Origin: Spinacia oleracea
Taxonomy: Eukaryota; Streptophyta; Magnoliopsida; Caryophyllales; Amaranthaceae
Direction: 5' to 3'
Assembly: GCF_020520425.1 (NCBI RefSeq)
Contig: NC_079490.1
Span: 40,308,723-40,372,722, forward strand
Length of the DNA stretch: 64,000 bases
Every line of letters starts with the position of its first letter. Position 1 is the stretch's first letter. Under the pieces are notes generated by a model, which was not told where the DNA came from, ran no database searches, and worked only from the letters and a program-made list of their open reading frames with translations. A program made the translations under genes and the position numbers. This document shows positions 7,431-63,412 of this stretch, piece after piece.

Positions 7431-7431
7431 G

Positions 7432-15093: not shown

Positions 15094-15108
15094 GGACAAG
15101 TGGGAGAC
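15094..15108 (+). other. Polypurine tract of the young Copia element
   Basis: AGGACAAGTGGGAGA directly precedes the 3' LTR, the purine run typical of Copia elements (AAGTGGGAGA). The older copy has the same tract just before 17892. Confidence 0.7.
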
Positions 15109-16494: not shown

Positions 16495-16613
16495 GAAATG
16501 TCTATCAAGTGAACTTGAATGTCAAAAGTTGAAAATGGTCCCTGGTCGGAGTTTTCTATAAAGATAGACGCATAGAAAACGTTAGACGACTAGAATGCAA
16601 GATGACTAGTAGT

Positions 16614-19303: not shown

Positions 19304-19370
19304 GTATCTAGGGTTTGTAGACAGTGATTTCACTAGAGACCTTTACGGGTCTTTGTATAAGGATAGGCTT

Positions 19371-39464: not shown

Positions 39465-42400
39465 CTAGTCAATATTAATTGAATCACCCCTCCTATTTTG
39501 TGTAGCACTTGGACGATGTTGATGTAAACGCTGCCATTGTTCAATTCTGGATTCTAGAGGAATGTTCCATCCATCGACGCTAGATTGATGAAAACGGCGC
39601 CAATATGGACAAATTGGTGGTAGTGGAAAATCTTCTTTCATCTCAATCTGTTCGATACATAAACCATTTAGATAAAAGTAAATTAAAAATTAAGTAAAGA
39701 TTGAATTAATAGCGTACACATACCATGATAAAGTGTCCCATGCGTTGTATAAAACCAAGTGTAAAGATCTGATTAAGATAGCTTTTCCCTTTTTCCGCAA
39801 ACAAAGGAAGGAAAGTCAATGATTGAGATATCGAGAAACAAACAACCACAACATTGTACTTAGTAGCGATGATAGTACCCGTTTCGAATAAACTCATCCA
39901 ATGAACTTTAGGCGCAGGTCCAGCATAATGTTTAATAGAGGTTAAAGTACCCAGACCGTCATGTAAGACATTACTGTAAAAGGCAAAATTGTTTTCAAGT
40001 TCTGTAGCTAATTCCTGCCGAATCGTAGGCCATCTATGTTCATCCCCATATGTCCACCGAGCAATAACTCTATACCCACAATTTCCATCTCCGATAACAT
40101 CGTGGATATAGTTGATGTGAGGCACAATATAAAATGGGAGATCACTAACCCATGGAGCAATATTCGGAGAAATACCTTTATTATTCTTAGATCGTGTATC
40201 AGGTGAAGGAGATTGTCCACGACCATCAACAGAGGGGTTACCACGTCCACAAGAAGAAACCTTTGAAGAATTAGATCGTGCCTGACCACGAACAGAAATA
40301 TTACCACGTCCACGAGAAGGAACATGTGAAGGGGGACGTCCGCGACCACGAACCGAGGTATGCGCATACTGTTGAGGAGTCTTTCCACGCCTATTGTATG
40401 CGGTCCGAGCATATTTAGCGCATTCCTGTTCAGTAAACTCCCAACTGCATAGATCTCTTTTTGTGGAATTTTTAGTCGACGGACGACCTTTAGGCTGAGC
40501 AGTGGGAACTGGTTCCTTCAATCTTGTATAATGAGGATGAATCATTTTCTCTAACTGGGATGCCCATTGTTTTTTTTCTTTCTTCCGATTGATTTAAAAT
40601 ATCTGCAAAATATGAGTGTAGTACCTTGTCTATATCATGTCTGCACTGAAATACAAATTTGTCCGAAGAATTGTCTTGAGGGGAATACTCTCCAACTTTA
40701 AAGGTCTTCCAAAATGGGTGAATATCACAAAGGCCAATACTCCTACTATCAGCCTCCATTTCCATCATCTCATGAGCGCATGGAAGACCGTGAGTATATC
40801 TCATATAGCACCCACACAAATTAGGGTCTTTACGAACTTCATCAACCCTTTTATATTCATTATCAAGTAAGCGTAATGCTTTGTGTGTAACTCGACCTTT
40901 TAACCACATAAAAATCCGTAAAATTGTCATATGTGGATCCTTATTTTGCGACCGTTGAAATGCAGCTTTTATTTCAGTCATCTGTGATTCTAGAAAAGAA
41001 TGAATCTTAGGCCAAATGGTATCCAAACTTCCTGTCGATGTCTTTAGCCACGCTTTCAATGCTGCATGTGCACTTTCTACCCTATATTACAAATCAAAAT
41101 ATAACAAACGTAAATTATGGCAATTTTCATTAATATTAATTACATTAATAAAATTATGGCAATAAAATAGTTACCTATTGGTCATCCTGTTCCCCAAATG
41201 TAAAACATTCATCGTATAGGCACGAACAAATCTATTTCTATATTTCTCAATCCACGATGATCTTACGTAATTCAGTACTGCTGGCATTCTAGCAAATGCT
41301 TTAACCATTTCTCTATACCTTTTCCTATACATTTCGATCGTATCAGCTTCCACTACTCTTTGCCACCTTTTTATAAAAGATTTCACAATAAGCTTGTTTT
41401 TTGTGATTTTCAACACATAGTTCTCGATATTTTTCTGAATATGTCTTGTACATAAAAGATGGGACGAAGTAGGAAACACAATATCGATAGCATTCATTAG
41501 AGCCAATTCCCTATCAGTTACAATTGCAACTGGCAACTTCTCTGGATCAAATAATTGTCTTACACAGCCAAGAGCCCATTCATAACTCCCTTGTTGCTCG
41601 TCTTTCAACCATGCAAATCCAATAGCAAAAAAATTTCCAGTGGGAAGCACACCAACTATTTCTAAAAATGGCATCCTATATTTGTTTGTTTTATAAGTGC
41701 AATCAATTAATATGACATGAGGAAATAAACGCACCAACTCAATAGCACTTGGGTGTGCAAAAAATATGTCCCTTACCACGTCTGTTCCAACTTCTTCCCG
41801 ATGGTACTACACATAATTATTATCAACAATGAGTTTCATAAGTTGTTGCATCACTGACCGACCTCCCATTGTTTCAGTTTTTAACTTTTGACGAGCATTG
41901 TAAATATGTTTTACTGTAGTTAATATTCGAGGATCCAAATTCTTCAAAATAGCCATAATCATGTTTGGCTTGACATGACTAGTCGACAGTTCTTTCACTA
42001 TAGACAACTGATGTGGTTTCAACTTTGCAATAATCGCACGACCCTCGTTGTAATTAGGAAGATCATGATTGTGCATACCATGACGAACAACTACACTCCA
42101 TCCGCCACCAACATGCTCCTTTGCTTGAAGTCTAAAGGGACACGACATCTTTTTTGTTCCAGTAAATTTTTCCACATCTATTGCAACTTTCGACTTGCTA
42201 AGCCTATATTTTCCAGCTCTCTCACAAGTAAGGGTAGCTTTCGCCGTTCCAAAACCAAGACCATCCCCACCTTCAGACCGAGCAATGATAATAACAATAT
42301 TATGCATTTTACCCACTTCAATCACCCAATCAAGCATTTCCCTTCGAGTAGCAAACACTGTAGTGGTTGTAAAAAATTCTGTATAATCAGTGGCATTCTC

Positions 42401-43001
42401 ACTAACTTTTTCAATGTATGCACCATCCTACAAAACAAGTTTTTTTAAAGGATTTATTAAGACAAAAACAAAGGAATAAAATAAAATTCACGAATATAAC
42501 GTGCTTCAATCAATTTTCAAATATCAATTACTTTGACCATCTTCTGTAATATATATGTTAATATGTGATTTTGTAAGATTCGTATCGAATATTGTTCATA
42601 ATACCATTTTTTTCAATTTGTGCATAATGACATGTTCTATATTGTTCGTTGTACATGAAATCTTGTGTACTATTACATGTATTATGAGTGAAATATGGTA
42701 AACCATTTCGTCCAACGTATACAAAATATTTAATTAGGTTTTGTTCGATTTGTATGGAATATTTAGTTCTGTTATGTTCAATCTGTAGGAAATAGTAAAA
42801 TCTATTTTGTTCAATCTATACGAAATAGTTTGTTCCATTATGTTCAATATATACGAAATAGTAAATTCTATTCTGTTCAATCTGTACAAAACAGAAGTGT
42901 GTATTTCATACAAGTTGCAAGAAATCACTCGAAAAAATAGAAAAAAAAAAACGAATATTACCTCAATTCCAAGGTCTTCCAAGTCAAAAAAAATCGTCCA
43001 T
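39465..43001 (-). CDS. MULE transposase with C-terminal OTU cysteine protease (broken)
   Basis: Minus-strand exons about 43001-42962 (start), 42427-41175, 41081-39724 and 39647-39465. Order: FAR1/zinc-finger-like N terminus (CPFRLQA...HNHDLP), MULE DDE domain with Asp in LIDCTYKTNKY, Asp in VTDRELALMN and Glu in RVESAHAALK (across an intron), SWIM finger CGCYMRYTHGLPCAH, an Arg/Gly/Pro-rich linker, then an OTU protease with GDGNCGYR (catalytic Cys) and GHFIM (catalytic His). OTU enzymes cleave ubiquitin chains; their job in MULEs is unknown. Lesions: a TAG inside exon 2 (41807-41809), a frame change at an A8 run (40570-40577) between SWIM and OTU parts, and a T8 run that puts the apparent MDDF start out of frame with exon 2. 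Probably a decayed transposase-OTU fusion. Confidence 0.7.
42731..42895. repeat. 33-bp minisatellite in the transposase-OTU intron 1
   Basis: About five degenerate copies of TGTTCAATCTGTACGAAATA followed by GTAAATTCTAT. It lies between the first and second exons of the MULE 1 transposase, so it is intronic. Confidence 0.6.
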
Positions 43002-45127: not shown

Positions 45128-45877
45128 CTACTGAGTCTTTGTATCATTACAAGATTTAGTATATGTTTTCTTTTCACGAGTTTGCTCTGGAATCCATCTA
45201 GAGATCGTTCGTGTTTCTATATCGTAATTCTTCAAGCATACCGGAGAATTAGTGTCGTTAGTGTTATTATTGCCCAAAACATGTAAAACTAGCAATGTCT
45301 TAGCAACGCCACCACAAAGCCGAATTGTACCATACAAATCAGACCATAACTTTAGCCGTCCACTAGAATTACCACTATCTTTTCTTCCTGATAGTACAAG
45401 AATTGCATATTCTGAATGGACCAAGGCTGGATGGTGGCGATAAGCAACATAATCAACTCCATATTGAGATCCTGACTTCACAACCCAGTTATTCATTCTT
45501 AGATGAGTGTATGCTTTGAAAAACTCGGGAAACATTTCAATTTCTGAAATTATCAAGCGCCACAACTCTTCATAAGTTTTCACAACGCCATCGCCTCCCT
45601 CAATCTTCAAACATTTCAACATATAGCACAAATAGAAAGCCTCTTGTAAAGTAAGTTCATACCAATGTTTATCCTTCTGACTGGCTCGGCCAAAACATGC
45701 ACGGTTCAGAAGCTCAGATTGTTCTGTATCTGCTTTAAACAAAACCCTGCTTCCAAATAACAACCCCTTGCAATCTGATGTGGTTAGGCATGTTTGAAGT
45801 GCTAATACAATTTCTGACATTGGTTCTGCAAGGGCTTTTGCTTCAGCACCCTTCCCCTTCCATCTTGGACCCATCAA
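45128..45877 (-). CDS. SEN2: tRNA-splicing endonuclease catalytic subunit, Sen2 type
   Basis: A single 249-aa frame starting MMGPRWKGKGAEAKALAEPM, which matches the N terminus of plant Sen2-type subunits (Arabidopsis SEN1/SEN2, about 240-250 aa). The catalytic triad is at the expected spacing: Tyr146 in DYVAYRHHP, His154 in ALVHSEY, Lys193 in GVAKTLL (8 and 39 residues apart, as in human Sen2). The protein cuts the 5' exon-intron junction of intron-containing pre-tRNAs in the SEN complex. Full length and uninterrupted. Two adjacent ATGs make the exact start ambiguous by one codon. The leader probably extends right, possibly with an intron, since 2 kb without coding follows. Good candidate for a functional host gene. 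Confidence 0.9.
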   Translation of the reverse strand: MMGPRWKGKGAEAKALAEPMSEIVLALQTCLTTSDCKGLLFGSRVLFKADTEQSELLNRACFGRASQKDKHWYELTLQEAFYLCYMLKCLKIEGGDGVVKTYEELWRLIISEIEMFPEFFKAYTHLRMNNWVVKSGSQYGVDYVAYRHHPALVHSEYAILVLSGRKDSGNSSGRLKLWSDLYGTIRLCGGVAKTLLVLHVLGNNNTNDTNSPVCLKNYDIETRTISRWIPEQTREKKTYTKSCNDTKTQ

Positions 45878-47877
45878 GTCTCTCTTCAGAATAAGAGTTC
45901 AGTCACGTGCATTCACTACTAGCTATTCAAAAATCACAATCTTGAACAGACATCCAATTCATCTAGCTGCAAATGGACAAAGCATTCAAAGTACATTAAC
46001 GTTTACGGCTTTAGATTATAAATCACCAGCAACTAAAATTAATGTGAGAAAATTAAACATTGAAATACAGATTTCAAACTTATATCATCAGCAAACAAGA
46101 TTAGTAGCAGGTAGGCAATCATACATACTAAAACAAGTCTCCAAGGATAGAAGTGCTAATTGCCTAAAACATAACAACTTACAAGTTACAACCATCTAAT
46201 GCAACTCCACATCTTAAACTCCTCTCAACAATCCACAATCTAGGATAAAATATACTCCAGCACCAAATGATTCAGAATTAGAGCCAAGCACCCCAAAATC
46301 TAAATCCTTGAAAGTGGAGATGATAAAGAAGACAACTTTTTGTGACTTTACTCCACGTTCCTCCAAATTATACTAAATGCACAATCCAACCAAAATCCAC
46401 ACCATAACCTAAAGGACCAAATTTGATTGCCTAATATAAGTATGAACTATCCAATATAAATCCATCACATTGAAAACAATCCAGTTAATCATATGAATTT
46501 GTCAGTTGGTCTAACAAGTTATCTTCTTAATTGACTAATTTATTTTTTAAGTTTTTAATTACCCTTTTTTGTGGAAATATCAATAGACTACTCTAAAGTC
46601 CAATCAATGAATTCTTATAAGTGGAAAACAGAAAGTTAACAGTATGCTGAGCCTGGCAGGCAGGTTAATTGTGGTTAGAGGATATTAGGCAGGTGAACAC
46701 CAGGTGAGGTGAGGCGAGGCGTGGCGCGTAGGTGAGGCGAGGGCGCAAGTATCGAGGTAGAACCGTCATCGGCTTCTTGCTAATTTAAAGCTTGGTTTCA
46801 ACAGAGATATCCAATTTCATTAATTTGGAAAAATCCGATGGCCTGACAGTATTAAATTAAGATTCAGGTGAGCGAGGGTGTGAGGCTGACAGGCAAGATA
46901 AGTTTAAGTTTGGCAATAATTCTCATTCCCCATAATTTTTGAATTCAGTAATTCACACTTAGCCTTTTAGCTTCATTCTAAAACATTCAAAAAAGTTCAC
47001 CCTAGGCCAAAATTTTGCAATCGAGGAACATTTATTTTATACCCTGTAACAACTAACAACGCGTATATAAAGTACTTAACTATTACCAAAAGAGACACTT
47101 ATCTCTATAATATAAATAAATAAATTAACAAAACTCCTTTAAACACACTATTGAAAGTGAAGGCGTGTAAAACATTATATATCCTCCGTTATTCACGCTT
47201 GTTGCAAACAAATTTCCTTATTGGAATCCTAATTATGCTTTGTTAGTCACAACTTACAAGTATGAAAAGACTCATCATTTCCTGTTCTCCCTTGTTAATT
47301 TGGTTCTTTTTAAATAAACGCATTGTAGTGACTAGTGAGAAGATGCTAACATAGTTAAGCTCTATTTTGTTCACTTTATTTCCACTTATTTCAAGAAAAA
47401 CACATTCAGTTATTTCCACTTATAAGATAAGTTCAGGAAAAAAACAAGTTAAAATCAAGTGAATAGAACACCCTTAATAATCCAACCAATAATTTAGCCA
47501 AATATTTTTGATGTCACGACAATGATGACCTACGAATCAACAGTTTCAGAAGAATAATCCTGAATTCCTTTCATAATTTTAAACATTTTTATATTACAAT
47601 GCATGAAACAATTACCTATAAATACCTTTTTGAACAAACAATGCTTATTCGTACAAAAGTTAACGATTGCCATACCTTGCAAGTTCGGTCTAAAACGACA
47701 CAAAGCACGTGGATCAAACTGTAAAAAAATTTGAAATGAAAAACCAAAACAATCTCATCTTATTTATCCGAGAACATAGACAAAAGCTCGGGGCCAGCTA
47801 GCTATTCTTGGGAATCAAAAGGCCTAACCTGATCTATCTCCAAAATCCAACCAAGAGCTATGCGCCTATGCATATTG
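45878..47877. other. Non-coding stretch upstream of the Sen2-type gene
   Basis: No recognised coding. Includes a GC-rich GTGAGGCGAGG repeat patch at about 46690-46750. May hold the leader or a leader intron of the Sen2-type gene. Confidence 0.35.
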
Positions 47878-48381: not shown

Positions 48382-48525
48382 ACAAAACTAAAATATGGGA
48401 GACAACGGCGGCTGTTGTTTGCACTGAGTGACTGAGCAGCGCGGTAGCGGCAAGTTGAACCGGAAGAGGGAGATAGAAACAGAAATAGACGGGAGAGGAA
48501 CGATTAGAGATTCAATTCCGCTTGC

Positions 48526-48566
48526 ATGGACCCGGTCCACCATTAAGGTTATCATGGACCAGGGTA
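48526..48566 (+). repeat. Left end of MULE 2, interrupted palindrome
   Basis: GGACCCGGTCCACC is followed 14 bp later by ATGGACCAGGGTAATT. The inner word matches the inverted right end. Pairing of GGTCCA with TGGACC inside one end gives a foldback structure. Confidence 0.45.
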
Positions 48567-48727
48567 ATTAGGTAATTTGCAGCGCTGAACCGTTTGAAAT
48601 CACGTGTTCCAAAATAACAGAATGCGCGAAACCCTAAAATTGAAATCTCTCTCCTCCAGCAGCAGCTTCTCTCTCTTACAGCAACTTCTCTCTCCTCCAA
48701 CAGCTTCTCTCTCTTCGAGCTTCAACA

Positions 48728-51700
48728 ATGGAGGACGATTTAATCGATTTGAATATCGATTTAAATCGCGCAATAGAAGAAAAATTGTATAATTATGACG
48801 GTAATATTCGAATCCTAATAACTAACTACGAAGAAAATTATAGTAACTTTCATACTCATTGAGTAATTATTATTATTTTAGAAAACTTTGAGAATCATAG
48901 AGAAGTATATGATGTTGAAGATGAAGATGAAGGCACATCTCAGCAAGTTATGGTTGCAAATCAATGTATTGAAGAAGGTATGATATAGTATCTTTTAATA
49001 TATATATAGTAACTGTTATATTGATATAGTTAACATATTATAATTGCAGTAGTGTAACTAACATAGAAAGAGGAATTATATTTAACGCAGAGTAACTATA
49101 ACATACAAAGAGAAACTATGTTTAATGTAGAGTAACTATCTCATATAGACAGGACTTATAGTAACTGTAGAGTAACTATAAACTATGGAGACTAACTATA
49201 TAAAATGAAGAGTAACTATCACATATAAAGAAGAACTATATACTGTAGAGTAACTATCACATATAAACAAGAGTTATATAAGTGTGAGTAACTATAATAT
49301 ATAAACAGTAACTATATAAAATAAAGAGTAACTATCACATATAATGATAACTATATTTAAAATAAAGTAACTATAATTTATGAATGGTAACTATATTAAT
49401 TATAGAGTAAGTATGTTAAATATAGAGTAACTATTACATGTAAAGAGTAACTATATGAACTGTAGAGTAACTATAACAATCAATAGATCTTAAGTAACAA
49501 TGTTAAATATAGAGTAACTATAACATATAAAAAGTAACTATATAAAATGCAGAGTAACTATCACATATAAAGAAGAACTATATACTGTAGAGTAACTATA
49601 ACTTATAAAAAGGAGTTATAGTAACTATAATATATAAACATTAACTGTATAAAATGAAGAGTAACTATCCCATATAATGATAACTATATTTATAATAAAG
49701 TAACTATAATTTATGAAAGGTAACTATATTAATTATAGAGTAACTTCACATAACGAAATAATCTATATAAGCAATAAACTACATTTAACTTATAGTAACT
49801 ATAACATATAAAGAGTAACTATATTAACTGTAGAGTAACTATAACAATCAATAGATCCTAAGTAAGTATGTTAAATATAGAATAACTATTACATGTAAAG
49901 AGTAACTATATGAACTGTAGAGTAACTATAACAATCAATAGATCTTAAGTAACAATGTTAAATATAGAGTAACTATAACATATAAAAAGTAACTATATAA
50001 AATGAAGAGTAACTATCACATATAAAGAAGAACTATATACTGTAGAGTAACTATAACATATAAAAAGGAGTTATATTAACTGTGAGTAACTATAATATAT
50101 AAACAGTAACTGTATAAAATGAAGAGTAACTATCCCATATAATGATAACTATATTTATAATAAAGTAACTATAATTTATGAAAGGTAACTATATTAATTA
50201 TAGAGTAACTTCACATAACGAAATAATCTATATAAGCAATAAACTACATTTAACTTATAGTAACTATAACATATAAAGAATAACTATATTAACTGTAGAG
50301 TAACTATAACAATCAATAGATCCTAAGTAACTATGTTAATTATATAGTAACTATAAAATATAACGAGTAACTATATAAATATTAAGAGTAACTATCACAT
50401 TTAATGATAACTATATTTGTATTTGTACAGGTTCAATAATACATTCAATTGATACAAACCACAACATCTTTGAAAATCCAAATAATGAGCAGGAAGAAAA
50501 CATTGATAAAGAATTAGATGGCAGTTTAATTGGAGAAGCAAGGAAAATAACCGATGAGATTTATGATCTATATTGCAAACATGCTGCTATTATTGGTTTT
50601 AGTGTACGAAAAGGGAAGAATAGATATAAAGAAGGAACCACAATTGTTAATGGAAAATACTTCTACTGCTCTGCTGCTGGAATAAGAGACCCTCCTAAAA
50701 ACAAAGAACTCAAAAATGAAGATGATCAATCAGATGCAAAAAAGAAAGAAAGGAGAAAGAGGGTTATGATAACAAGAACAAAATGTCAAGCTCAAATATT
50801 TGCAAAGAAGAATGAAAATAGAGATTTTGAAATAGAAAAGCATGTAGTGGTACATAATCACCCATTGACAAGAGAAATAAGTAATTATCTCCACCGATCG
50901 GAACGATAAATGACAGAACCTAAAAAAGAAGCTATTGAGGCAATGTCAGAATGTGGTCTAAGACCAATGGAGTCTTATAGGTATATGTCAACAGAAACTG
51001 GCGGAGACGACTGTGTAGGTCATACGATGATTGATCATCTAAACTACTGCTACAAGTTAAAAATGAAGCAAATTGATGGCAAGGATTCACAAACACTAGT
51101 GAACAAACTGTATGACATACAATCAATAGATCCCGAGTTCTTTTTCAGAGTAAGACTCAATGCTGAAGGAAAAGTCGAGTGCCTATTTTGGAGGGATTCT
51201 ATGATGAGAGAAGATTACAAAATATATGGAGATGTTCTAGTTTTTGATACTACATTCAGAACCAATAAGTACAATCTCATATGTGCTCCATTTGTTGGTA
51301 TCAATAACCATTGGAAAAACACAATGTTTGCTTGTGCTTTCATTGGGGATGAAACCACAGAATCTTTCGTTTGGGTGTTTGAAACTTTTCTGAAGGCTAT
51401 GGGAGGAAAGCACCCTATATCAATTTTCACTGATCAAGATGCAGCTATTGCTGCTGGAATAGAACAGGTACCTCTTCATATATTATAGTTACTATTTTGA
51501 CAATATAGTAACTCTTTATAAAATATAGTTACTATTTTAACAATATAGTATCTCTTTATAAAATATAGTTACTATTTTGACAATATAGTAACTCTTAATT
51601 CAATATAGTTACTATTCTAAAATTATAGTAACACTTTATAAAGTATAGTTACTATTTTGACAATATAGTAACACTTTATAAAGTATAGTTACTATTTTGA

Positions 51701-53256
51701 AAATATAGAAACTCTTATTAAAATATAGTTAATATTTTGACAATATAGTAATTCTTTATAAAGTATAGTAACTCTTTATAAAATATAGTTACTATTTTGT
51801 GGAACTATATATATTCATTATTGTTTTTCAGGTTTTTCCTTCTTCAAGACACAGGTTATGCTTGTGGCACTTGAGTAAAAATGCAAACAGTAGGTTTGGT
51901 TTATTGAAGTCTGATAAAAACTTCAAAAACGCATTCTACAAGTGTTTAAGTGGGTGTATAACACCAAATGATTTTGAAGAAACTTGGAAATCTATGATCA
52001 ACACTTTTAAGCTGGAAAAAGATGACTGGTTCAACAGATTGTATGGTCTTAAAGAAAAATGGTGTACAGCTTTAAGTAAAGATTTTTTTTCTGCCGGTAT
52101 ACTTTCTTCACAAAGAAGTGAAAGTACAAACCATGCTGTTGGTTTTAAAGCAAATAAAAGTACAACATTAACAGAGTTCTATAGTATTTTTCAAGCTACA
52201 ATAAATCGATGGAGAAAAACCGAAGAAAAAGACGACTTTGACTGTACAAGGGGAATACCAACTTCAGAGCTAAGTATGAGTGCTATATTAAAACAGGCAG
52301 CAAATGTATACACGATAACACTTTTTCGTGATTTTGAAGAAGAGTTCAAGCTTTCTGTGGCAAGTAGTACAATGTTCAAGGGAAGTGTAGGAAGAACAGT
52401 GTTTTTTGAAGTGTGGATAGAAGGAATAACAGGTAAAAAAACTATAAATCTTTATTTATTATTTAGAGTAGATGTTCTTTTGAATAATATTACATTATAT
52501 GTAAATAATCTAACAGGATCAAGGCAAGAAGTTCAATACAAAATGGAAGATTCAACCGTCACTTGCACATGCAAAAACTTTGAAGAATCTGGATGGTTGT
52601 GCTTCCATTGTTTAAGAATATTGCATATACATTCAATCAATACAATTCCAGATCGTTACATAACAACAAGATGGACTAGATATGCAAAGAAACAGATATG
52701 GGAAAGGGTTGATACAATAAAAAGGGAGAAAGGTGAAATCAACAATTTTACTGGTTGGAGATTACATATGATCAGAAGGTAATTTTTTCAATATACATTA
52801 GTTCATTTTCATATATTTACAATTACAGTTGATATTTTACTTAACACTTAAACTCTATACCACAGATACTATAACTTAATTTTGAAAGGGCATAAGATAG
52901 CAAAGGCCAGAAAATTTATCGAGGAGAAGTTTAAAATGGATAATAAAGCAGTTGATGAAATCATAAAAAAGGAAGAAGAAAGGAAGGCAAAAGAAGAAGC
53001 TGCAAAGATAGCAGAACAAGAAAAGGCAAAAGCTGAAGCACAACGAGAAACACAAGACGGGGAATCAACTAATTCTGAAATAACAATTGTGCTTGATCCT
53101 GATCGTGCTAATACTAAAGGAAAGAGTAAGAAGAGAATAAAGGGTCAATATGACAATTACAAGCAGCCATCAAAGAAAGGAAAAAAGAAACACAAAGAAT
53201 TTGGATCCAAGACACCCAATATTCAATTATTTACACCTAAAGAACAACTATTTTAG
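48728..53256 (+). CDS. FAR1/Jittery-like MULE transposase, one in-frame stop
   Basis: Exons 48728-48800, 48882-48977, 50431-51467, 51832-52432, 52517-52778 and 52866-53256 join in phase through GT-AG introns, about 820 codons. Order: acidic N terminus; FAR1-type zinc-binding region (TKCQAQIFAKK ... HNHPLTREI); MULE DDE domain with Asp in LVFDTTFRTNKYN, Asp in SIFTDQDAAIA and Glu in SSQRSESTNHAV; SWIM finger CTCKNFEESGWLCFHC; then a Lys/Glu-rich coiled-coil-like tail (EEERKAKEEAAKIAEQEKA) and a basic end. All three catalytic acids remain. The only lesion seen is a TAA at 50907-50909, between the zinc region and the DDE domain. Introns 2 and 3 consist largely of the palindrome arrays. Could be recently inactivated, or start downstream at the ATG right after the stop. 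Confidence 0.75.
48995..50425 (+). repeat. GTAACTAT array in transposase intron 2
   Basis: About 1.4 kb in which GTAACTAT recurs every 15-30 bp, mostly in plus orientation, with spacers such as AACATATAAAGA. Larger-scale duplication is visible: blocks of several hundred bp near 49440-49790 and 49890-50220 repeat the same order of units. It lies within one intron. Confidence 0.85.
51475..51800. repeat. ATAGTTACTAT array in transposase intron 3
   Basis: Alternating ATAGTTACTATTTTGACA and ATAGTAACTCTTTATAAA, so both orientations of the palindrome half alternate with a period of about 50-55 bp. Fills nearly the whole 364-bp intron. Confidence 0.85.
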
Positions 53257-53269
53257 TGATGTTCTTGTT

Positions 53270-54190
53270 TTATTATCATATACAGTTACTTCAACATTTT
53301 TAAACAAATTTATTGAGTGTTTATACTATAGTTCTCCTTTACAATACATAGTTACTATACATTCAGTATAGTAACTCTTTATAAACACACAATTTTTATT
53401 TATAGTAACTCGTTATAAAATAGTTACTATTTTGACAATATAGTATCTCTTAATACAATATAGTTACTATTCTGAAAATATAGTAACTCTTTATAAAATA
53501 TAGTTACTATTTTGACAATATAGTAACTCTTAATAAAATATAGTTACTATTCTGATAATATAGTAACTCTTTATAAAATATACTTACTTTTTTTACAATA
53601 TAGTAACTTTTTATAAAATATAGTTACTATTTAAAAAATATAGTAACTCTTAGAACAATATAGTTACTATTCTAAAAAAATATAGTAACGTTTTTTATGC
53701 AATCAAAATGACTTATAGTAACTATATGTTACTCAAAAATAAAATACCATAAAAAAGAGAGTAATTGTATCTTATTAAAGATAACTATATCTGTAAGATA
53801 GTAACTATTTGAATTTATACACAAAATTATTCACTTTTTATATATACCAACTCTTCACATTTAGTGGTCACCCTTCTTTACATATAGTAACTCTATATAA
53901 AATATAGTTACTATTTTGATAATATAGTAACTTTCGTTATGCCATCATATGACTTACAAATTTATAAGAGTAACTATATTTGAAGAAAGGTAACTATTTC
54001 ATTCAAATAGAAACTATATTTAAAATAAGTAAATTGAACAATATCACACAAATACTGCAAAAGTTATAATTACTCTCATATATCAAACAATTAAAAATCA
54101 TTGAGAGTAACTATATCAAACTTAGAATTCGACTACATACAAACACAAAAAATTATTTGAACAGTAACTATATCAAACTTAGAATTGTAC
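53270..54190. repeat. TAACTAT arrays in the spacer between the convergent genes
   Basis: The 1-kb spacer between the two stop codons of MULE 2 is filled with the same words in both orientations, denser on the transposase side (53330-53700) and looser toward the protease gene. Any shared polyadenylation signals must lie within this repeat. Confidence 0.8.
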
Positions 54191-54255
54191 ATTCTAAGTA
54201 GTAATTCGACTACATACAAACACAAAAAATTAAATTGTTTTTTCAGCAATAATTA

Positions 54256-57200
54256 TTAACCACGTGAAGCACCTCGTCCACGTGCCTTCCCGCGTCTGCC
54301 TCCTCGGGTGCGTCTCCCGCCTTTGCCACGTCCTTTCCCTTCAACATTGACATCTGTCTCAGCTTCATCTTCTGTTTCAACATGTTTGGATTTCCTTGCT
54401 GAACTATTTCTTGCAACAATTTCAATTTTTGAAGCATCATTCATGTATTTCTGCGTCAACTCTTCCCTTTGTTTAATTAGGGCATCCAAAACATCTTGTT
54501 TCCTGTATTTCCTGAATGCAACCATTCGTTTCAGATATTCATCTCTGTAACAATTCAAATCTGACAACACAATGGTGCCACAAATACAAGCCCTGAGAAA
54601 CTTCCTGAAATCTTCCTGCAAATATTTGAACAGTAACTATTAGAATAAAAACAGTAACTATGATAACAAAACAATAACTATAAAGAATGAAAAGAAAAAT
54701 ATGAATAACATTAATTATTTTTAACACAAAAACTTACATCTGCCAAGGGATCAAAGTCAAAAATCCCAACACCATCTTGTACCGTTTCAACACCATGAAA
54801 AACCATCATTAACATCATCAAATAGACACAACAGTCTTTGTCATAAGCACGTCGCTTCCAATTACCACCGACCGGGATAAATTTGAAGCTTTTAATATCT
54901 TCATGATGAATGTTATCCATATTTTTCAGTAGTTTTTCCAATGAAGAACACTGTACAAAACATATAGTAGGTATTATCAACATATAGTAACCTTTGAAAT
55001 CATATAGTAACTATTACCAACATATAGTAAGAATTAAAATCATATAGTAACTATTAAAATCATATAGTAACTATTACCAGTTGGTTAAAAATCATATAGT
55101 AACTATTAAAATTATATAGTAACCATTAAAATCATATAGTAACTATTAAAATCATATAGTAACTATTAGAATCATATAGGAACCATTAAAATCATATAGT
55201 AACCATTACCAACATATAGTAACCTTTGGAATCATATAGTAACTATTTTATAACGATAGTAACTATTTTAAAAACATAGTTACTGTTTTAAACAAATAGT
55301 AACCTTGTCAAAAATATAGTTCCTCTAAAAAAGAAAGACTAATATAAAGGTAACTATAACATTTATAGAGTAACTACAACAACAAAAAAGGTAACTATGA
55401 AAAAAACTTACCAAGACAGAATAAGCTTTCTTCCTTTGTTCCATCTCTTTTGGTTCCAGAAGCATATTATCAAAGAAATAGACACTTTTGTCTTTCATAC
55501 TAATGACAAACAGGTAATAATGCTTCGGGTCTTCAATTAGAACAGGAGCAAAAATCTATATAAAAAAGAAAAACAACAGATTACAACTACAAGAAAGGAG
55601 ACAAAAAAAAGAAGATAATATGGTTATATAAAGAAAATATAAATCATACCATATTACAATCTTTCAACGATTGAACTCCATTTACATCTTTCACACCATA
55701 ATTAAGACAAACACACAATTCAGACAAGATTTTTTCATTGCCTGGTTTCTCAATCAAATCAGCAACATATTTCTGCAAATCAATATTAAAAGAAAAATTA
55801 AACAAAGGCCAAAAAAATTTAAAATAATTAACATTTTATATTATTAAAAATATAACTTACACAATATGTGCCACCTAAAAACAGATTCTGAGGAGAACCA
55901 GCAGGATTCCTTTCATTTTCATTCAATAAAAAAGCCCAAGCTTCAATATGAATCAAAAGAATATCAAATGTGGAAGGAAGGGTCCACATGTCATCTCTTC
56001 CTACCGCAATAAAATGATTGTATTCTATAACTTTATCACTGAAAAACATAAAAAAGAAACAATAAATATGTCAGAAGAATTATAAAGGTTACTATAATAA
56101 ATAAAAGGTAACAATAGAATATAAAAGGTAAATATAGTAAACAAAAGGATACTATAGTATACAAATAGTAACTATATTATATGAAAGGTTACTATAAAGT
56201 TAGGGCAACAACTTCACTTTTAAGAAAGGTAACTATATTATATGAAAGGTAACTATATTATATGAAGGGTTACTATAAATAATAAAAAGTAACTATATTA
56301 TATGAAAGGTAACTACATTATATGAAAGGTAACTATATTATATGAAAGGTAACTATAATATATGAAAGGTAACTATAATATATGAATGGTAACTATATTA
56401 TTTGAAAGGTAACTATAAATTATTAAATGAGAAAACTTCTACTTACTTAGTCAAAATACCCTCTCCATCAGTCAGAGCAGCAAAGTCCACAGCTTCTTGA
56501 ACAAATGCTGGAAGATGCCTCATTAAATCTTCAAATGCTATCATAAACGGAGACATAAACATCACATTTTCCTCTATGCCATAGACACTGACATTCACTC
56601 TTGATACAGCATGGTTGTTAATGATGCATTTTTGAAATCCAGCCCACACGCGCTCATATTCTTCTATTTCTTCATCATCATCCTCCGTAATTTCTTTATC
56701 TTTGCTTTTCAAAGAATCAAGAACTGCATTTATTTGAGTGTCAGGATCAACTTCTCGAATAATTGCTTCGGTAGATGTTGTTGCATCAACAACAGCAGCT
56801 GTAACAACTGCAGGCTCAGTTGGAACAACGGCAGAAGGTTGAGGGGCAGCAGTAACAACTGGATTGTTACTTGAACCAAAAATGTCATCCCAACCATTTG
56901 GTAGATTCTTCACCAACTGATGAATCTCCACCAACTCATCAACCATCTTTTGATAAGTGGAATTTTCCAAAATATCATCGCCATGGTTCTGCGAAGGCAT
57001 TGAAGCCTTTAATTTGAACAGCTCTTCAGCATGGATGGCTGAAACTACATCCAGATCTCTCTTCATCAACAACCACTGACCATGAAAATCCTAATAACAA
57101 AATACATAAATTTAAATATGGAACATAATATGAAAATTTAACTAAAAATACAAAAAATATTATAAGAAAAGGTATCTATAGTATATAAAGATAACTGTAT

Positions 57201-60200
57201 AAAAGTTAACTATAGTATATGAAAAGTAACTATAGAATATAAAAGATAACTATAGAAAATAAAAGATAACTATAGTATATAAAAGATATCTATAGTATAC
57301 ACAAGATAACTATAGTACATAAAACATATAGTAACTATTTATACCATATAGTAACTGTTTAAAACATATAGTTACTATTTGTTAAAACAAAGTAATGGTA
57401 ACATAGTATGTGAAAGATAACTATAGTACAGAAAAGATAACTATAGAATATAAAAGATAATTATATATACCTACATTTACTAAACCAAAGATAATGATAA
57501 CAATAGTGTATAAAAGATAACTATAGCATATAAAAAATAACTATACTATATATTGACAAATATATCAATAATAAAATAAACTTACATCAGTGGCTTTAGA
57601 GAAAATTTCTTCATCTGTAGGATGAGAATTAGGGATTTCAAACTGAAGAATCCTAGGACGCCGACTTGGAATTCGACGCCCAACATAGGGCTGTTCAGCT
57701 CTTCCCCCACTGCTGCCTGCTTCATTTTCTTTCGAAATAGATTTGATTTGGGTCAAATCTATTTGACCATCAACAAAAACAAACTTTTTGGAAATTGGAT
57801 ACTTCCCCTTCTCCAATATACCAGAACCATATAATGCACTCATATTGGCATTTTCAGCATGAATCCGATCGGTTACCATCTTCGATGTCCAATGCTGAAT
57901 AAGAGGTAATTGATCAGGAATACCACTGGAATTCCTAAACTTAATCCTCTGAAAATACACAAGTTGCAAAAACACAACACAGCCTCCAAATGTCTTTTGA
58001 TCTTTGCCTTTCAATAAACTATTTTTAAATTTCACTGTTTCCTCACATAATACGTCAAGAACGTATTTACACCAATTGTATTTGGAAATCATTTTAGGAT
58101 CTTCCAAAGCCTTAGCCAATCTCAAATCTACAGTCCTATTGGCTGTTGGAGTAAAAAATGTAGAGAAAGCAACAAAAACAAATAATTGTTTAAACAGATC
58201 ACCACCATCTGTCAACAATTTAATCTTGTCCTCAAGCAACCTTATAGGAATTTGAGCATTGACCTCTTCAAAACCGAACTCTTTTCTCCACTTGATCTTC
58301 AAATCAAAATCAGGATTAGTGGAATTGCGCCCACGTTTAACCCCTTCAACCTCCAGCTCAGAAAGGGGGAGCATAAACAAATCGTACACATCATAATCAG
58401 TGATTTCAAATTTCTTGGAATCACTGATTGTAAACAGAGAACTCACACCATCAAAGCACTTGATGCACCAGTACATCATCTGAGTGTTTTTTCGACTTAA
58501 TTGAAGGCCTAACAATCCTCCAAACCCTATCTCTTGAACAGCTGCCTTTTGATCAGGAGAGAAGTCTTTAATTAATTTACACAATGATCCTCCTGAACAT
58601 TGTGTATCAAAATTAAACCTGAAAAAAATGAATAATGAAAGTAAGTCAGCTTTATATATCATATAGTAACTATTTAGAACATATAGTAACTGTTTAAAAC
58701 ATGTAGTAACTATTAGAAACATATAGTTACTATTTAGAAAATATAGTAACTGTTTAAAACATATAGTAACCTTTCAAATAATATAGTACCTATACTACAC
58801 ATAGAACCTATTTATAACATATAGTAATTATTTAGAAGATATAGTAACTGTTTAAAACATAAAGTAACTATTTAGAACATATAGTAACCTTTGATATAGT
58901 CAATATTGTAAACATAGTACACATAGAACCTATTTAGAACATATAGTAACTGTTTAAAACATATAGTAACCTTTGGAGTCATATAGTAACTATTGTAAAC
59001 ATAGTACACATAGAACCTATTTAGAACATATTTCAAAACATATAGTAACTATTTAAAACATATAGTAACCTTTGGAATCATATAGTAACTATTTAAAACA
59101 TGTAGTAACCTTTGGAATCATATAGTAACTGTTTACAACATATAGTAACCTTTGGAATCATATAGTAACTGTTTACAACATATAGTAACTATTTTAAAAA
59201 ATATAGTAACTATTTAGAACATAGTAACTATTTTGAACATATAGTAACTATTTAGAACAATTAACTAAATTAAACTAACACTTACACGATAGGCAGGCCA
59301 TCAGCGCCAACTTCTTTCAAAACTTGTGAATGAAGTTGATGAGATTCAGGCTGTGGAACGTCAACCAGAGAAGAATTTTGTAAAACTAGTTGATTAGGTT
59401 GTTCTTCTTCAATTGGTTCTTTTTCAGATACAAGCGCAATTGCTTTTGATTTCGGACTGCCAGCCTTTTTGTTCTTCTTTATAGACACAGATTCCTTAGC
59501 AACTGAAACAAAACAATTATAAAACAAAATATTACTATATAGTAACCATTACAATCACATAGTAACCAATAAAATCATATAGTAACCTTTCAAATAATAT
59601 AATAAATACATAAACATAAAGTATCCATTTAAATCAGATAGTAGCTATTTATTAGACATAGTAACTGTTTAATTTTATAATAACATTTAAGAAAGATAGT
59701 AACTATTTATAACACATAGTTACTGTTTTAAAGTTATATTTACTTTCTAAAAACGATAGTAACTATTTATAACACATAGTTCCTATTTTAAAGTTTATTT
59801 ACTTTCTAAAAACACAGTAACTATTTATAACACATATTTACTGTTTTAAAGTTATATTTACTTTCTAAAAAAGATAGTAACTAATTATAACACATAGTTA
59901 CTATTTTAAAGTTAATTTACTTTCTAAAAAGACAGTAACTATTTTAAAAACATAGTTACTGTTTTAGAAATATAGTAACCTTTTAAAAATATAATTACTC
60001 TAAAAAACTACGAACAAACCAGTCACTAATAAAAACACTTAAAAACTTCGTAACATAAAATAAAAAGTAACTATATCTTTGAAACAGTAACTTCAAACAA
60101 AAACCACAAACATTTCAATAATTCAAAATCAAACAAAAAATAAGTTCGAATTACTAGAAATTTCTTCAGAAACAGCAAATAAAAGGTAACTATATCTTTG

Positions 60201-60582
60201 AAACAGTAACTGCATGAAACACTAAACCTAATTTCAGCAAAAACCACAAACATTTCAATAATTCAAAATCAAACAAAAAATAAGTTCGAATTAACAGGAA
60301 TTTCTTCAGAAACAGCAAATAAAAGGTAACTATATCTTTGAAACAGTAACTGCATAAAACACTAAACCTAATTTCAGCAAAAACCACAAACATTTCAATA
60401 ATTCAAAATCAAACAAAAAATAAGTTCGAATTACCAGGAATTTCTTCAGAAACAGCATTTGGCCTTCTTCCTCGCCTTCGAGGAGCTTCAACAGCCATTT
60501 CAGCGACGGAATTGTCGAATTCAAGTTTCTTCGCTGCCGGTTTCTTCGCTGCCGGATTCTTCGGTGCCGCTTTCTTCACCAT
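54256..60582 (-). CDS. ULP1-like C48 cysteine protease carried by MULE 2, intact
   Basis: Nine exons on the minus strand: 60582-60435, 59502-59286, 58618-57586, 57090-56447, 56038-55861, 55772-55650, 55555-55412, 54950-54738, 54615-54256. All junctions are GT-AG and in phase and no stop interrupts: 1019 aa. N terminus: PAAKKPAAKK repeats and an AT-hook-like PRRRGRRP. The middle (exons 3-4) is a long region of the kind found in plant ULP-like TE proteins. The C48 protease fold is in exons 5-8, with His in KHYYLFVI (about 793), Asp in VYFFDN (about 810) and Cys in YDKDCCVYLM (about 869), matching the His-Asp-Cys order. The usual oxyanion Gln is not obvious. C terminus: Gly/Arg-rich, RGG-like. 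The family cleaves SUMO or related precursors; its role in MULEs is unknown. Intactness over nine exons suggests selection or youth. Confidence 0.8.
54960..55400. repeat. ATAGTAACTATT array in ULP1 gene intron 7
   Basis: Dense ATCATATAGTAACTATTAAA units between exon 8 and exon 7. The intron lengths (461 bp here) are set mostly by the array. A few copies (CAGTAACTATTAGAA) are also in the small intron 8 at 54616-54737. Confidence 0.8.
56070..56430. repeat. GGTAACTATATTATATGAAA array in ULP1 gene intron 4
   Basis: A regular 20-bp period of GGTAACTATATTATATGAAA, more homogeneous than the other arrays. Bounded closely by exon 5 (from 56038) and exon 4 (to 56447). Confidence 0.85.
57160..57575. 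repeat. GATAACTATAGTATATAAAA array in ULP1 gene intron 3
   Basis: Recurring GATAACTATAGTATATAAAA with interspersed ATATAGTAACTATTT. Fills the 495-bp intron between exons 4 and 3. Confidence 0.8.
58655..59275. repeat. ACATATAGTAACTATTTAGA array in ULP1 gene intron 2
   Basis: Unit of about 20 bp, ACATATAGTAACTATTTAGA, with variants GTAACCTTTGGAATCATATA arranged in higher-order dimers near 58960-59180. Fills most of a 667-bp intron. Confidence 0.85.
59535..60000. repeat. Degenerate TAACTATTTATAACACATAG array in ULP1 gene intron 1
   Basis: Looser copies with a 60-65-bp higher-order period (GTAACTATTTATAACACATA then TACTGTTTTAAAG). Adjoins the 140-bp tandem repeat at 60060. Confidence 0.75.
60060..60470 (-). 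repeat. 140-bp tandem repeat spanning the ULP1 exon 1 donor
   Basis: Three copies with the landmark TAAGTTCGAATTA at 60141, 60281 and 60421, exactly 140 bp apart. The rightmost copy includes the last coding bases of exon 1 and its splice donor (CCTG|GTAATTCG). The other two copies repeat that exon end inside intron 1. Confidence 0.85.
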
Positions 60583-60824
60583 TTTTTAGAAAAAAGAAGA
60601 TCGGAAGAGTAATTTGATGCAAATGGATGAAAATAATCACTGAAATTAAATTTGAAATGGAGAGAGAAATTCAGAGAGAAGTTGGGAAACAGTTTAGAGA
60701 GAGAAGTTGAGTGAGAAGTTCAAAAGCCGGGAAAAAGGAAATTAAAAAAAAAACATATATATAATTAGGAAAGCACGTGACAGTTACAAACAACTTCTCG
60801 CACGCAACAACGCAAAGACTATAA

Positions 60825-60855
60825 TACCCTGGTCCATAGCATGGACCAGGTTTAC
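60825..60855 (-). repeat. Right end of MULE 2, near-perfect palindrome
   Basis: CCTGGTCCAT-AGC-ATGGACCAGG forms a 10-bp stem with a 3-base loop. Read inward on the minus strand, ATGGACCAGGGTAT matches the left end. Confidence 0.45.
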
Positions 60856-60919
60856 TATAGTGTAATTTAGAGTATTCCAGTTTGTCACTCACGAAGAAGT
60901 TTTAGCTTCAATTGGCTTT

Positions 60920-60923
<4 letters not shown>

Positions 60924-60953
<30 letters not shown>
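60924..60953 (-). other. LINE poly(A) tail (A30 on minus strand)
   Basis: An uninterrupted run of 30 T on the plus strand at the 3' border of the LINE. Such pure tails shorten and mutate quickly, so a long pure run suggests a fairly recent insertion. Confidence 0.8.
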
Positions 60954-60957
<4 letters not shown>

Positions 60958-60974
60958 GGAAAAAAAACCAAGTT

Positions 60975-61553
60975 AACCCCTTTGAAAGGAAAACCTAACT
61001 CATCCTTTCGGATGATGAGGGAAAGGGAATGATCAAAAGACGAAAACCACAGTGACATAATAGGACAAGAGTTTCCTTTTGCCGCCAAGAAATCCGCCGC
61101 TTGATTGGCTTCCCGATAACAAATAGTGACAGAAAATGAATCCAAATTTGATAAATCCCGACTAGCATCCTCAACGAGCCCACTAATCTCCCACGGGACC
61201 TGCCAAATCTTGTTCATTGAATTGACCACCACCAAATTATCCCCTTCAATAATGAGATTTTTGCACCCCATTGCCACCGCACTTTTGATTCCTTCTCGAA
61301 GTGCCGAAACTTCAGCAAATAGGATGGAGTCCTCCGGGTGAAGAGCCTTGGCTCCCGCCACTAACAATGCTCCCTTCTCATCGCGAATAATAAACCCCAA
61401 ACTTTTGGTAGAAGTTCCTCTTTTGGCACCATCGAAATTTAATTTGAAGAAACCGGTAGGAGGACGGTTCCACGCCACTTGCTTTTTAGCATGACTAACA
61501 CTTTTTTTAGGAATAGAGGAAGGATAATCTTGCTCTTCGACTGTAGACCACAT
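60975..61553 (-). CDS. LINE RNase H domain (RVT_3 type)
   Basis: A plant-type RNase H fold: FKLNFDGAKRG (first Asp), FAEVSALREGI (Glu), IIEGDNLVVV (Asp) and YREANQAADFLA (last Asp) occur in order over about 130 residues. It removes RNA from RNA-DNA hybrids during target-primed reverse transcription. The frame differs from the preceding zinc-finger block, with a shift near 61555, so this copy is not intact. Confidence 0.8.
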
Positions 61554-61555
61554 CT

Positions 61556-62002
61556 TTATGTGGTGTTAATGATTAAGCAACTAATTTCTGTGACTGATCT
61601 TGATTCATTTCTAAACACTATTGCATTTCTAGTATACCAGATATACCACCAAACTGTAGCTATTTTTTCTATGGAAGCCCACCCCAAGGAATCCTTAATG
61701 TGAATTAAGTTATCAATCAATGATTTATCGGGATCAGGGGAAGTGAGACACCAACCATGTGAATGGTTGAGATGGCTAAGCAGATCCTCTCCAAATGGGC
61801 AAGAGAGGAACAAATGCTCACTAGATTCTGTATGGTGGGAGCAAAATTGACACTGGAGAGGAACCGAAACATGACTTCTAAAAATTATTTCCTTTGATGG
61901 AAGAGCATCACTACAAATTTTCCATAGAAATTTTTTAATTTTTGGGGCTACATTTAGTTTCCAAATCCAGTTGAAAGGAACTCTATTCTCTGTTGCTAGA
62001 GA
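61556..62002 (-). CDS. LINE reverse-transcriptase zinc-binding domain (zf-RVT)
   Basis: FNWIWKLNVAPKIKKFLWK leads into CQFC...SSEHLFLSCPF, the CxxC...H...C pattern of zf-RVT. It continues a frame interrupted by the solo LTR on its 5' side and ends at a stop before the RNase H block. Confidence 0.8.
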   Translation of the reverse strand, partial: SLATENRVPFNWIWKLNVAPKIKKFLWKICSDALPSKEIIFRSHVSVPLQCQFCSHHTESSEHLFLSCPFGEDLLSHLNHSHGWCLTSPDPDKSLIDNLIHIKDSLGWASIEKIATVWWYIWYTRNAIVFRNESRSVTEISCLIINTT

Positions 62003-63412
62003 TGTTAGGTTATGATACATATGACAATTCATAAATCATGCGGAAAAACCATAAAGCCAGGAAAGCATATTATTTACACATAATCATTTAGCATAGTTTA
62101 GATGCATACTCTTTGTTGCGTGCCTTCCCTAGCTGCGCCCGAACCGAACAAGAACAAGTCTTTAGGACTCCAAGTGTCGTCCCTCCGTAGATAGTCCACA
62201 GCACGTCCGGATCCGCCTTAAGCTTGACCAACTAGGATCGCCCTTAAGGTACTTAGAATTTTCGGCACTTATAGGCAATTGTGTGACTGAATTTTTGCTC
62301 TCAAAAATCACTTTGAATACTTGAATACTCGATGAAAAACTCGTTTATAAATTTATGACCCTAGGCATATATTTATAGAACCTTAGAAAGGATTTCGAAT
62401 CCTGTTAGAATACTAATTAATTAATTAGAATCCTATTAGAACTCTAAATAATTAATTTAATCTTTTAGGATTAGGATTTAATCTATGCACGAATTCCGAT
62501 AGCTTTAGGATTCGTATAGCACGTGCACACGCACCGCACGAGCATCGCACGCCCATGCGTAAGCCTTGCGGCCCACGCTGTGCGCACGGCGCACAGGCCC
62601 ACTGCCCGCAGCCCATTTGTGCGCGCGCGCCAGCCTTGGCTGGGACTGGCCTTGCGCTGGGCCTGGTTGAGGCATTGGCGTGTTGTTGGATGCGTGTGGC
62701 TTGCTGGGCGATGGCCTGGCTTCGTGCTGGGCCCTCGTCCGGCAGGCCTCGTCCGATGCTTATTCGTACGATACGCTTCCGATTAAATTCCCGGTTCCGG
62801 AATTCATTTCCGATACGAACAATATTTAACATTTCCGATTCCGGAATCAATTTCCGTTTCGAACAAATATTTAATATTTCCGTTTCCGGAATTATTTTCC
62901 GATTCCGATAATATTTCCGATTCTGACAATATTTCCGTTTCCGGCAATATTTCCGATTCCGGCAATATTTCCATTTCCGATAATATTTTCCGATACGTAC
63001 CATGTTTCCGTTTCCGGCAACATCTACGACTTGGATAATATTTATATTTCCGATACGATCCATATTTCCGTTTCCGGCAATATCATCGTTTCCGGAGTAT
63101 TCATTTCTTGCCTGTGACGATCTCAGCTCCCACTGAAACCAAGATCCGTGGATTCCAAATATCCATAGATTGAGTATTTAATGCTATTAAAATACTTGAT
63201 CCGTTTACGTACTATTTGTGTGACCCTACGGGTTCAGTCAAGAGTAAGCTGTGGATTAATATCATTAATTCCACTTGAACTGAAGCGGCCTCTAGCTAGG
63301 CATTCAGCTCACTTGATCTCACTGAATTATTAACTTGTTAATTAATACTGAACCGCATTTATTAGACTTTAACATAGAATGCATACTTGGACCAAGGGCA
63401 TTATTTCCTTCA
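62003..63412 (-). repeat. Solo LTR of the Copia family at the window's left
   Basis: Minus-strand TGAAGGAAATAATGCCC...AACCTAACA, 1410 bp, flanked by the 5-bp duplication AGAGA (61998-62002 and 63413-63417). It has the same CGGAAA minisatellite and CpG-rich block. No internal region or partner LTR, so it formed by recombination between two LTRs. Length and GC block are closer to the older LTR at 17892 than to the 1386-bp LTRs. Confidence 0.85.

What the first reader, a model, noticed from the sequence alone, without database searches (positions are those of the whole stretch)
48990..60070. Intron- and spacer-restricted arrays of an 11-bp near-palindrome in MULE 2
ATAGT(A/T)ACTAT is a palindrome except at its central base. 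By eye there are on the order of 150-200 full or partial copies (not counted exactly). They fill two introns of the transposase, the spacer between the genes and most introns of the ULP1 gene. Exons contain essentially none, and the two short transposase introns 4 and 5 also lack them. Each intron has its own spacer flavour and period, so the arrays grew locally from a shared seed. A repeated palindrome suggests binding sites for a dimeric protein, perhaps one encoded by the element. I know of no described plant transposon with this layout.
Basis: partly seen in the sequence, partly recalled or inferred. Interest (0 to 1): 0.85.

Follow-up and report, generated by a model that had tools for sequence, protein, structure and literature searches.

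The report
Transposon carrying its protector's landing arrays
A plant jumping gene fills its own introns with roughly two hundred full or near copies of a short DNA word, most likely landing sites for a protein it encodes that keeps the host from silencing it, and relatives in the same genome use different words at nearly the same spacing.

Summary
ATAGTWACTAT occurs 44 times exactly, 122 times with up to 1 mismatch and 197 times with up to 2 in the element's 6.8 kb of non-coding DNA, and 0, 0 and 1 times in 5.5 kb of exons. The main pitch is 20 bp. All 30 genomic copies whose intron 2 was read carry the array. Related families in the same genome carry other motifs with little cross-occurrence: dense arrays in B and C (21 bp pitch), sparse ones in D1 and D2. 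The second gene ends in a Ulp1 domain; a model of its central domain has, as top PDB hit, VANC21 bound to its target DNA (probability 1.00), and a poor model from another family gives the same top hit. Sequence searches did not find that link. Motif positions vary less between copies than spacer positions. Best reading: target sites of an element-encoded, VANC-type, sequence-specific anti-silencing protein, as in Arabidopsis VANDAL elements, but beside a FAR1-type transposase. Binding and loss of methylation are inferred, not shown.

The parts
48513..60868 (+). whole element (about 12.36 kb), ends set by where homology with other genomic copies stops; no terminal inverted repeat at the very ends, short sub-terminal inverted GGTCCA...TGGACCAGGG stretches
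   Evidence: 9-bp target duplications exact in 4 of 5 other copies with both ends printed, 8 of 9 bases in the fifth; imperfect (about 7 of 9) in the window copy (read by eye)
48728..53256 (+). transposase gene: exons 48728-48800, 48882-48977, 50431-51467, 51832-52432, 52517-52778, 52866-53256; FAR1 + MULE + SWIM domains; premature stop in exon 3 of this copy
   Evidence: 28 of 30 copies read lack a stop at that place
54255..60582 (-). VANC-like/ULP gene: exons 60435-60582, 59286-59502, 57586-58618, 56447-57090, 55861-56038, 55650-55772, 55412-55555, 54738-54950, 54255-54615; 1019 codons, open
   Evidence: Peptidase_C48 residues 774-880, E 2.1e-6, 28.2 bits over the 20.7 cut-off; DUF1985 below cut-off
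57586..58618 (-). exon for the DUF1985-like domain; AlphaFold model matches VANC21-DNA crystal structure 9lnj
48978..50430 (+). transposase intron 2 array: 4 exact, 36 with up to 1 and 60 with up to 2 mismatches
51468..51831 (+). transposase intron 3 array: 7, 11, 16
   Evidence: length 244-484 bp in other copies
53257..54254 (.). spacer between the genes: 10, 22, 28
54951..55411 (-). ULP-gene intron 7 array: 8, 11, 21
56039..56446 (-). ULP-gene intron 4 array, degenerate: 1, 3, 12
57091..57585 (-). ULP-gene intron 3, degenerate: 2, 4, 5; still a 20-bp tandem repeat
58619..59285 (-). ULP-gene intron 2 array: 9, 19, 28
59503..60434 (-). ULP-gene intron 1 array: 3, 13, 22, followed by 140-bp repeats

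Best explanation
The arrays are target sites of the element's own second protein, a distant relative of VANC (DUF1985-like DNA-binding domain plus a C-terminal Ulp1-like domain). The protein reads the short motif where it is dense and in phase on the DNA helix (about two turns, 20-22 bp), gathers on the introns and spacer, and removes or blocks silent chromatin over the whole copy so that its genes stay expressed. The motif is kept out of exons because exons are constrained by coding. Each family has shifted protein and motif together, so each protects its own copies. Shown here: arrays, exon exclusion, family-specific motifs, pitch, lower diversity in motif positions, fold match of the central domain. 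Inferred: binding of this protein to this motif, and loss of silencing.
For: Arrays confined to non-coding DNA. All 30 copies read in intron 2 keep them (18-26 sites with up to 1 mismatch per 1020 bp) while intron 3 ranges from 244 to 484 bp in the 28 of 30 measurable. Motif diversity 0.043 against 0.076 elsewhere for the 25 best sites, lowest exactly in register. B, C, D1 and D2 each have an alignable second gene (31-44% identity in the central exon; tblastn) and a different motif with little cross-occurrence. Foldseek top hit of 350,542 chains for the window domain: VANC21 with target DNA, E 1.1e-3, probability 1.00, next best E 0.77. Same top hit from the D1 model, E 0.13, probability 0.80. 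A 2.6-kb copy lacking most of both genes keeps 27 sites with up to 1 mismatch. VANC21 and VANC6 targets are described as tandem-repeated short motifs in non-coding VANDAL DNA (PMC5735166).
Against: No binding, methylation, small-RNA or expression data exist here. Sequence search of the PDB did not find VANC21, and Pfam DUF1985 matches are all below its cut-off or absent. D1 and D2 arrays are sparse (17 and 8 seed sites), and D1's pitch rests on 2 gaps in a duplicated stretch. Families C and D1 have 3 of 75 and 2 of 17 seed sites inside annotated exons.
Confidence: 0.8

Rival explanations
1. Transposase binding sites: the FAR1 domain of the transposase binds the arrays to help transposition or self-regulation.
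For: All families carry a FAR1 DNA-binding domain (A, B, C, D1 over the Pfam cut-off), and a family-specific transposase could co-vary with a motif.
Against: The first 201 bp and last 278 bp hold no motif, whereas transposase sites normally lie at the ends (established knowledge). The 28-35% larger part of the arrays lies in introns and spacer far from the ends. It does not use the VANC21-like fold of the other protein.
Confidence: 0.1
2. Neutral short-period satellite that grows by slippage wherever coding does not forbid it.
For: Lengths change in unit steps between near-identical copies; AT-rich introns tolerate repeats.
Against: Different motifs in related families but nearly the same 20-22 bp pitch; within each unit the motif is the low-diversity part (37 of 37 pseudo-motifs overlapping it by under half have ratio 1.02 or more, against 0.71); the same motif in most separate introns and the spacer.
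Confidence: 0.07
3. Arrays act in RNA: splicing regulation, intron-mediated enhancement or small-RNA production in the host's favour.
For: They sit in introns; tandem repeats can feed RNA-directed DNA methylation (PMC10398659, passages).
Against: They also fill the spacer between the genes and occur in both gene orientations with the same orientation on the DNA rather than on the transcript (AGTAAC against AGTTAC on the window's + strand 44:0 in transposase intron 2; 14:1 and 22:1 by the GTTACT counts in ULP introns 7 and 2).
Confidence: 0.03

Closest known systems
VANDAL21 (Hiun)/VANC21 and VANDAL6/VANC6 sequence-specific anti-silencing systems, Arabidopsis
   Same: MULE with 9-bp target duplications and degenerate ends; second protein whose domain model has VANC21 as best fold match; short motif in dense tandem arrays in introns and intergenic DNA, mostly one orientation per array; related families with different motifs
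   Different: Different motifs (YAGTATTAY; AGTTGTCC/AGTTGTAC in PMC5735166); FAR1-type transposase instead of the SWIM/CCHC plus PMD/DUF set listed for the VANDAL group in PMC6446971 (passages); two genes here, three named in Hiun (VANA, VANB, VANC); DUF1985 not detectable over the Pfam cut-off; other plant
Ulp1-bearing VANC (Kaonashi/KIU-type) non-TIR MULEs
   Same: VANC-like protein with a Ulp1 peptidase-like C-terminal part (review passages PMC13317346)
   Different: Catalytic Cys looks kept in A and B but replaced in D1 and D2 (read by eye); FAR1-type transposase
Jittery-type (FAR1) MULEs, group 36 of PMC6446971
   Same: FAR1 N-terminal and SWIM C-terminal domains around the MULE domain
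   Different: The table passage seen lists no PMD/DUF/Ulp1 gene for that group; no phylogeny was built here

Membership tests
Mutator-like elements (MULE) | MULE transposase domain | tested here: met
   PF10551 E 1.8e-18, 67.2 bits, cut-off 27.6
Mutator-like elements (MULE) | 8-11 bp target site duplication, typically 9 | tested here: met
   9 bp exact in 4 of 5 copies with both ends printed, 8 of 9 in the fifth; window copy imperfect (by eye)
VANDAL group | absent or degenerate terminal inverted repeats | tested here: met
   terminal bases of the two ends are not inverted copies; only short sub-terminal inverted stretches
VANDAL group | transposase of the VANDAL clade (SWIM/CCHC, no FAR1 listed) | tested here: not met
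   FAR1 domain over cut-off in A, B, C, D1; judged by domain content against the table in PMC6446971, not by a tree
VANC-type anti-silencing system | VANC-like DNA-binding protein encoded by the element | tested here: met
   top Foldseek hit VANC21-DNA 9lnj for two models; Pfam DUF1985 below cut-off and PDB sequence search negative, so met by fold only
VANC-type anti-silencing system | short motif in dense tandem arrays in the element's non-coding DNA | tested here: met
   for the window element; for relatives
VANC-type anti-silencing system | motif differs between related families | tested here: met
   dense in A, B, C, sparse in D1, D2
VANC-type anti-silencing system | protein binds the motif and strips DNA methylation in trans | not testable with these tools
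   needs binding assay and methylomes
Ulp1-bearing VANC (KIU type) | Ulp1 peptidase domain in the second protein | tested here: met
   A 28.2 bits and B 30.5 bits over the 20.7 cut-off; D1 18.0 bits below it; the C and D2 exons scanned gave no C48 match
Jittery/FAR1-type MULE | FAR1 N-terminal and SWIM C-terminal domains | tested here: met
   placement by tree not tested

The most novel reading that the evidence does not exclude
The VANC-type anti-silencing cassette (DNA-reading protein plus its motif arrays) is not a VANDAL peculiarity but a module that also runs in a FAR1/Jittery-type MULE lineage, where it has radiated into at least five private motif codes in one genome, all tied to a pitch of about two helical turns, while the attached Ulp1 domain is free to lose its catalytic cysteine. 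The pitch would then be the conserved part of the code and the motif the evolving part.
Probability: 0.55. Interest if true: 0.75.

Novelty: new variant of a known kind. Interest (0 to 1): 0.62.

Why it matters
It gives a second, distant system in which to ask how a transposon protein recognises only its own family and how protein and target change together. Five motif families with homologous proteins in one genome form a natural set for matching protein changes to motif changes, with a solved VANC21-DNA structure as template. If the transposase really belongs to another MULE lineage, it also says that anti-silencing can travel between transposon lineages as a module. Recalled, not read: a 2022 EMBO Journal study of eudicot anti-silencing systems reports that motif sequence, density and helical periodicity set specificity, so pitch as such is not claimed as new.

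Tried and rejected
Local microsatellite: rejected, since copies and related families carry arrays. Palindrome as proof of a dimer: set aside, since relatives' motifs are not palindromic. Canonical DUF1985 hits as close relatives: PF09331 gave 149 matches (150 of 893 candidates scored) in this genome, none at the places of A, B, C or D by eye; one such locus, 6 kb, holds none of the motifs A-D. PDB sequence searches of the domain found no VANC21; the two profile searches gave only one DNA-repair phosphohydrolase at E 0.005 and 0.002, taken as chance. A second AlphaFold model (from D1) was poor. VIA-align was not available. Where the 10,572 genome-wide exact sites lie is not settled: the first listed clusters on C1 are not at scored transposase matches, and the one read (C1:2489757-2494864) has 6, 32 and 47 sites, no match to either protein at E below 0.25, and a sub-terminal CTGGTCCA...TGGACCAGGG stretch like the element's ends, so a non-autonomous relative is likely but unproven. 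In the pseudo-motif control, 47 of 157 pseudo-motifs scored as low as the motif; those at the low end overlap it by half or more, and the 37 overlapping by under half all scored 1.02 or more.

Full report
Observation. In the window (G000:C4:40308723-40372722; 894-Mb plant assembly with six large contigs, by inference spinach, the name coming from no call) ATAGTWACTAT is found 44 times exactly, all inside the element. With up to 1 and 2 mismatches there are 122 and 197 sites in 6812 bp of non-coding element DNA against shuffle means of 2.7 and 23.6, and 0 and 1 in 5522 bp of exons. The rest of the window has 0, 1 and 36. Introns under about 100 bp have at most one site. The pitch is 20 bp, with 40 second. 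Most arrays keep one orientation on the + strand (AGTAAC against GTTACT 44:0 in transposase intron 2; in ULP introns 7 and 2 the same + strand orientation 14:1 and 22:1), while intron 3 and the spacer alternate.

The element. Homology between copies starts at 48513 and ends near 60865-60868, giving about 12.36 kb. Nine-base duplications flank other copies: exact in 4 of 5 with both ends printed, 8 of 9 bases in the fifth, imperfect in the window copy (read by eye). The very ends are not inverted repeats. The + strand gene has FAR1, MULE and SWIM domains and a premature stop in this copy; 28 of 30 copies read lack a stop at that place. The - strand gene is open over nine exons and 1019 codons, with Peptidase_C48 at 774-880 (E 2.1e-6) and a DUF1985 match below cut-off.

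Copies. Of 1256 first-look candidates 150 were scored against the MULE exon; about 70 are 88% identical or more, counted by eye. In the 30 loci fetched, exon identity is 98.4-100%, the intron 2 stretch has 18-26 sites with up to 1 mismatch in all 30, and intron 3, measurable in 28 of 30, is 244, 304, 364 (14 copies), 404-405 (6) or 482-484 bp (6) with 10-23 sites. So the arrays persist but change length by units. A 2578-bp copy (C1:115883070-115885647) without most of either gene keeps 8 exact, 27 and 43 sites.

Related families. Families at 58-71% identity in the MULE exon carry other motifs: B, AATTAGTTAACTT, 21 bp; C, (C)TTAACTTTAAC, 21 bp; D1, ATAGTGACC, sparse; D2, TATAAGTTYACC, 22 bp, sparse. 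One locus per family was read. Across loci the motifs barely overlap (the palindromic A motif is counted on both strands there): A 88 in the window element and 0 in B, C, D1, D2; B 110 in B, 0 in A, 1 in D2; C 49 in C and 0 elsewhere; D1 11 in D1, 0 elsewhere; D2 8 in D2, 1 in the C1:2.49-Mb cluster and 2 in the rest of the window. Seed sites in annotated exons: B 0 of 292 (67.7 expected if uniform), C 3 of 75 (18.8), D1 2 of 17 (3.9), D2 0 of 8 (2.6); exon annotation of these is partial. Genome-wide, B's 13-mer occurs 1246 and 1178 times on the two strands against 91 and 105 for the reversed control, C's 14-mer 500 and 488 against 64 and 75.

The second protein. Its central exon aligns over A, B, C, D1 and D2 at 31-44% identity to A. 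The AlphaFold model from six sequences has pLDDT 60.7 and pTM 0.63. Foldseek against 350,542 PDB chains ranks 9lnj_A, VANC21 with its target DNA, first: E 1.1e-3, probability 1.00, 259 columns, TM-scores 0.42 and 0.40; second place has E 0.77 and probability 0.03. The D1 model is poor (pLDDT 40.5), yet 9lnj_A is again first at E 0.13, probability 0.80, next E 3.6. Sequence methods did not find the link. Pfam gives DUF1985 E 0.0012 in D1 and PMD E 1.4e-8 in D2, just under its cut-off, and nothing in the B and C exons. In the Ulp1 part the catalytic cysteine appears as DCC in A and DCG in B, DDA in D1 and DSG in D2 (by eye), so peptidase activity may be dispensable.

Constraint. In the aligned intron 2 stretch of 30 copies, motif columns have diversity 0.043 against 0.076 elsewhere for the 25 best sites, with the minimum in register; for 43 sites with up to 2 mismatches 0.055 against 0.077. 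The effect holds for A/T columns (0.0435 against 0.0636) and C/G columns (0.0927 against 0.1369) apart. Of 157 pseudo-motifs from the same consensus, 47 score as low as the motif; the 37 that overlap it by under half all score 1.02 or more, median 1.38. The copies are related and repeats can be homogenised, so this is support, not proof.

Comparison with print. PMC5735166 (text parts 1-4 of 6 read) shows that VANC21 and VANC6 act on tandem-repeated short motifs in non-coding VANDAL DNA, that VANC21 binds YAGTATTAY, and that motifs differ between families. PMC10398659 (part 1 and passages) and PMC13317346 (passages: Ulp1-bearing VANC genes) agree. The 2022 EMBO Journal paper is not held; what I say of it is recalled. 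PMC6446971 (passages) lists FAR1 for the Jittery group and PMD/DUF for the separate VANDAL group. In ten searches of the open library I saw no listing that describes such arrays in a FAR1-type MULE or in spinach; the library lacks most subscription papers, so prior description is possible. A shared look of the motifs (AGT, a few bases, then AC in A, B, D1, D2 and in the two printed Arabidopsis motifs) is suggestive only.

Verdict. The arrays most likely serve as landing sites of a VANC-type anti-silencing protein. It works like the VANDAL system and its protein has the VANC fold as best match, but I do not file the element as a VANDAL, because the transposase domain set differs.

Noticed in passing
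window 1600-7431 and 9850-16495; 17892-19311; 61996-63412: Large direct repeat (92-100% identical pieces, 6045-7431 identical to 15109-16495) with related copies at 17892-19311 and, inverted, at 61996-63412; they hold 18-bp CGGAAATATTACC-type tandem repeats.
   Followed up: partly
window 39709-42427 (-): A second, unrelated MULE (MULE domain E 6e-24, AFT-like domain) without the motif arrays.
   Followed up: partly
window 27051-27694: 640-bp AATAAAT microsatellite.
   Followed up: no
window 60098-60457: 140-bp repeat, 2.6 copies at 97%, in intron 1 of the second gene, each with AGTAACT-type sites.
   Followed up: no
window 60888-61565 (-): Reverse-transcriptase-like RNase H reading frame directly beyond the right end of the element.
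   Followed up: no
window 24216-24758 (+) and 45131-45898 (-): Host-type frames: DJ-1/PfpI family, and tRNA intron endonuclease.
   Followed up: no
L001-L004 (C1:2489757-2494864): Same motif in arrays (6 exact, 32 with up to 1 mismatch) without either gene, next to an end-like CTGGTCCA...TGGACCAGGG stretch.
   Followed up: partly
L066:2312-2410: 18-bp in-frame repeat coding an Ala/Ser-rich run in the family B second gene, a variable protein region.
   Followed up: no
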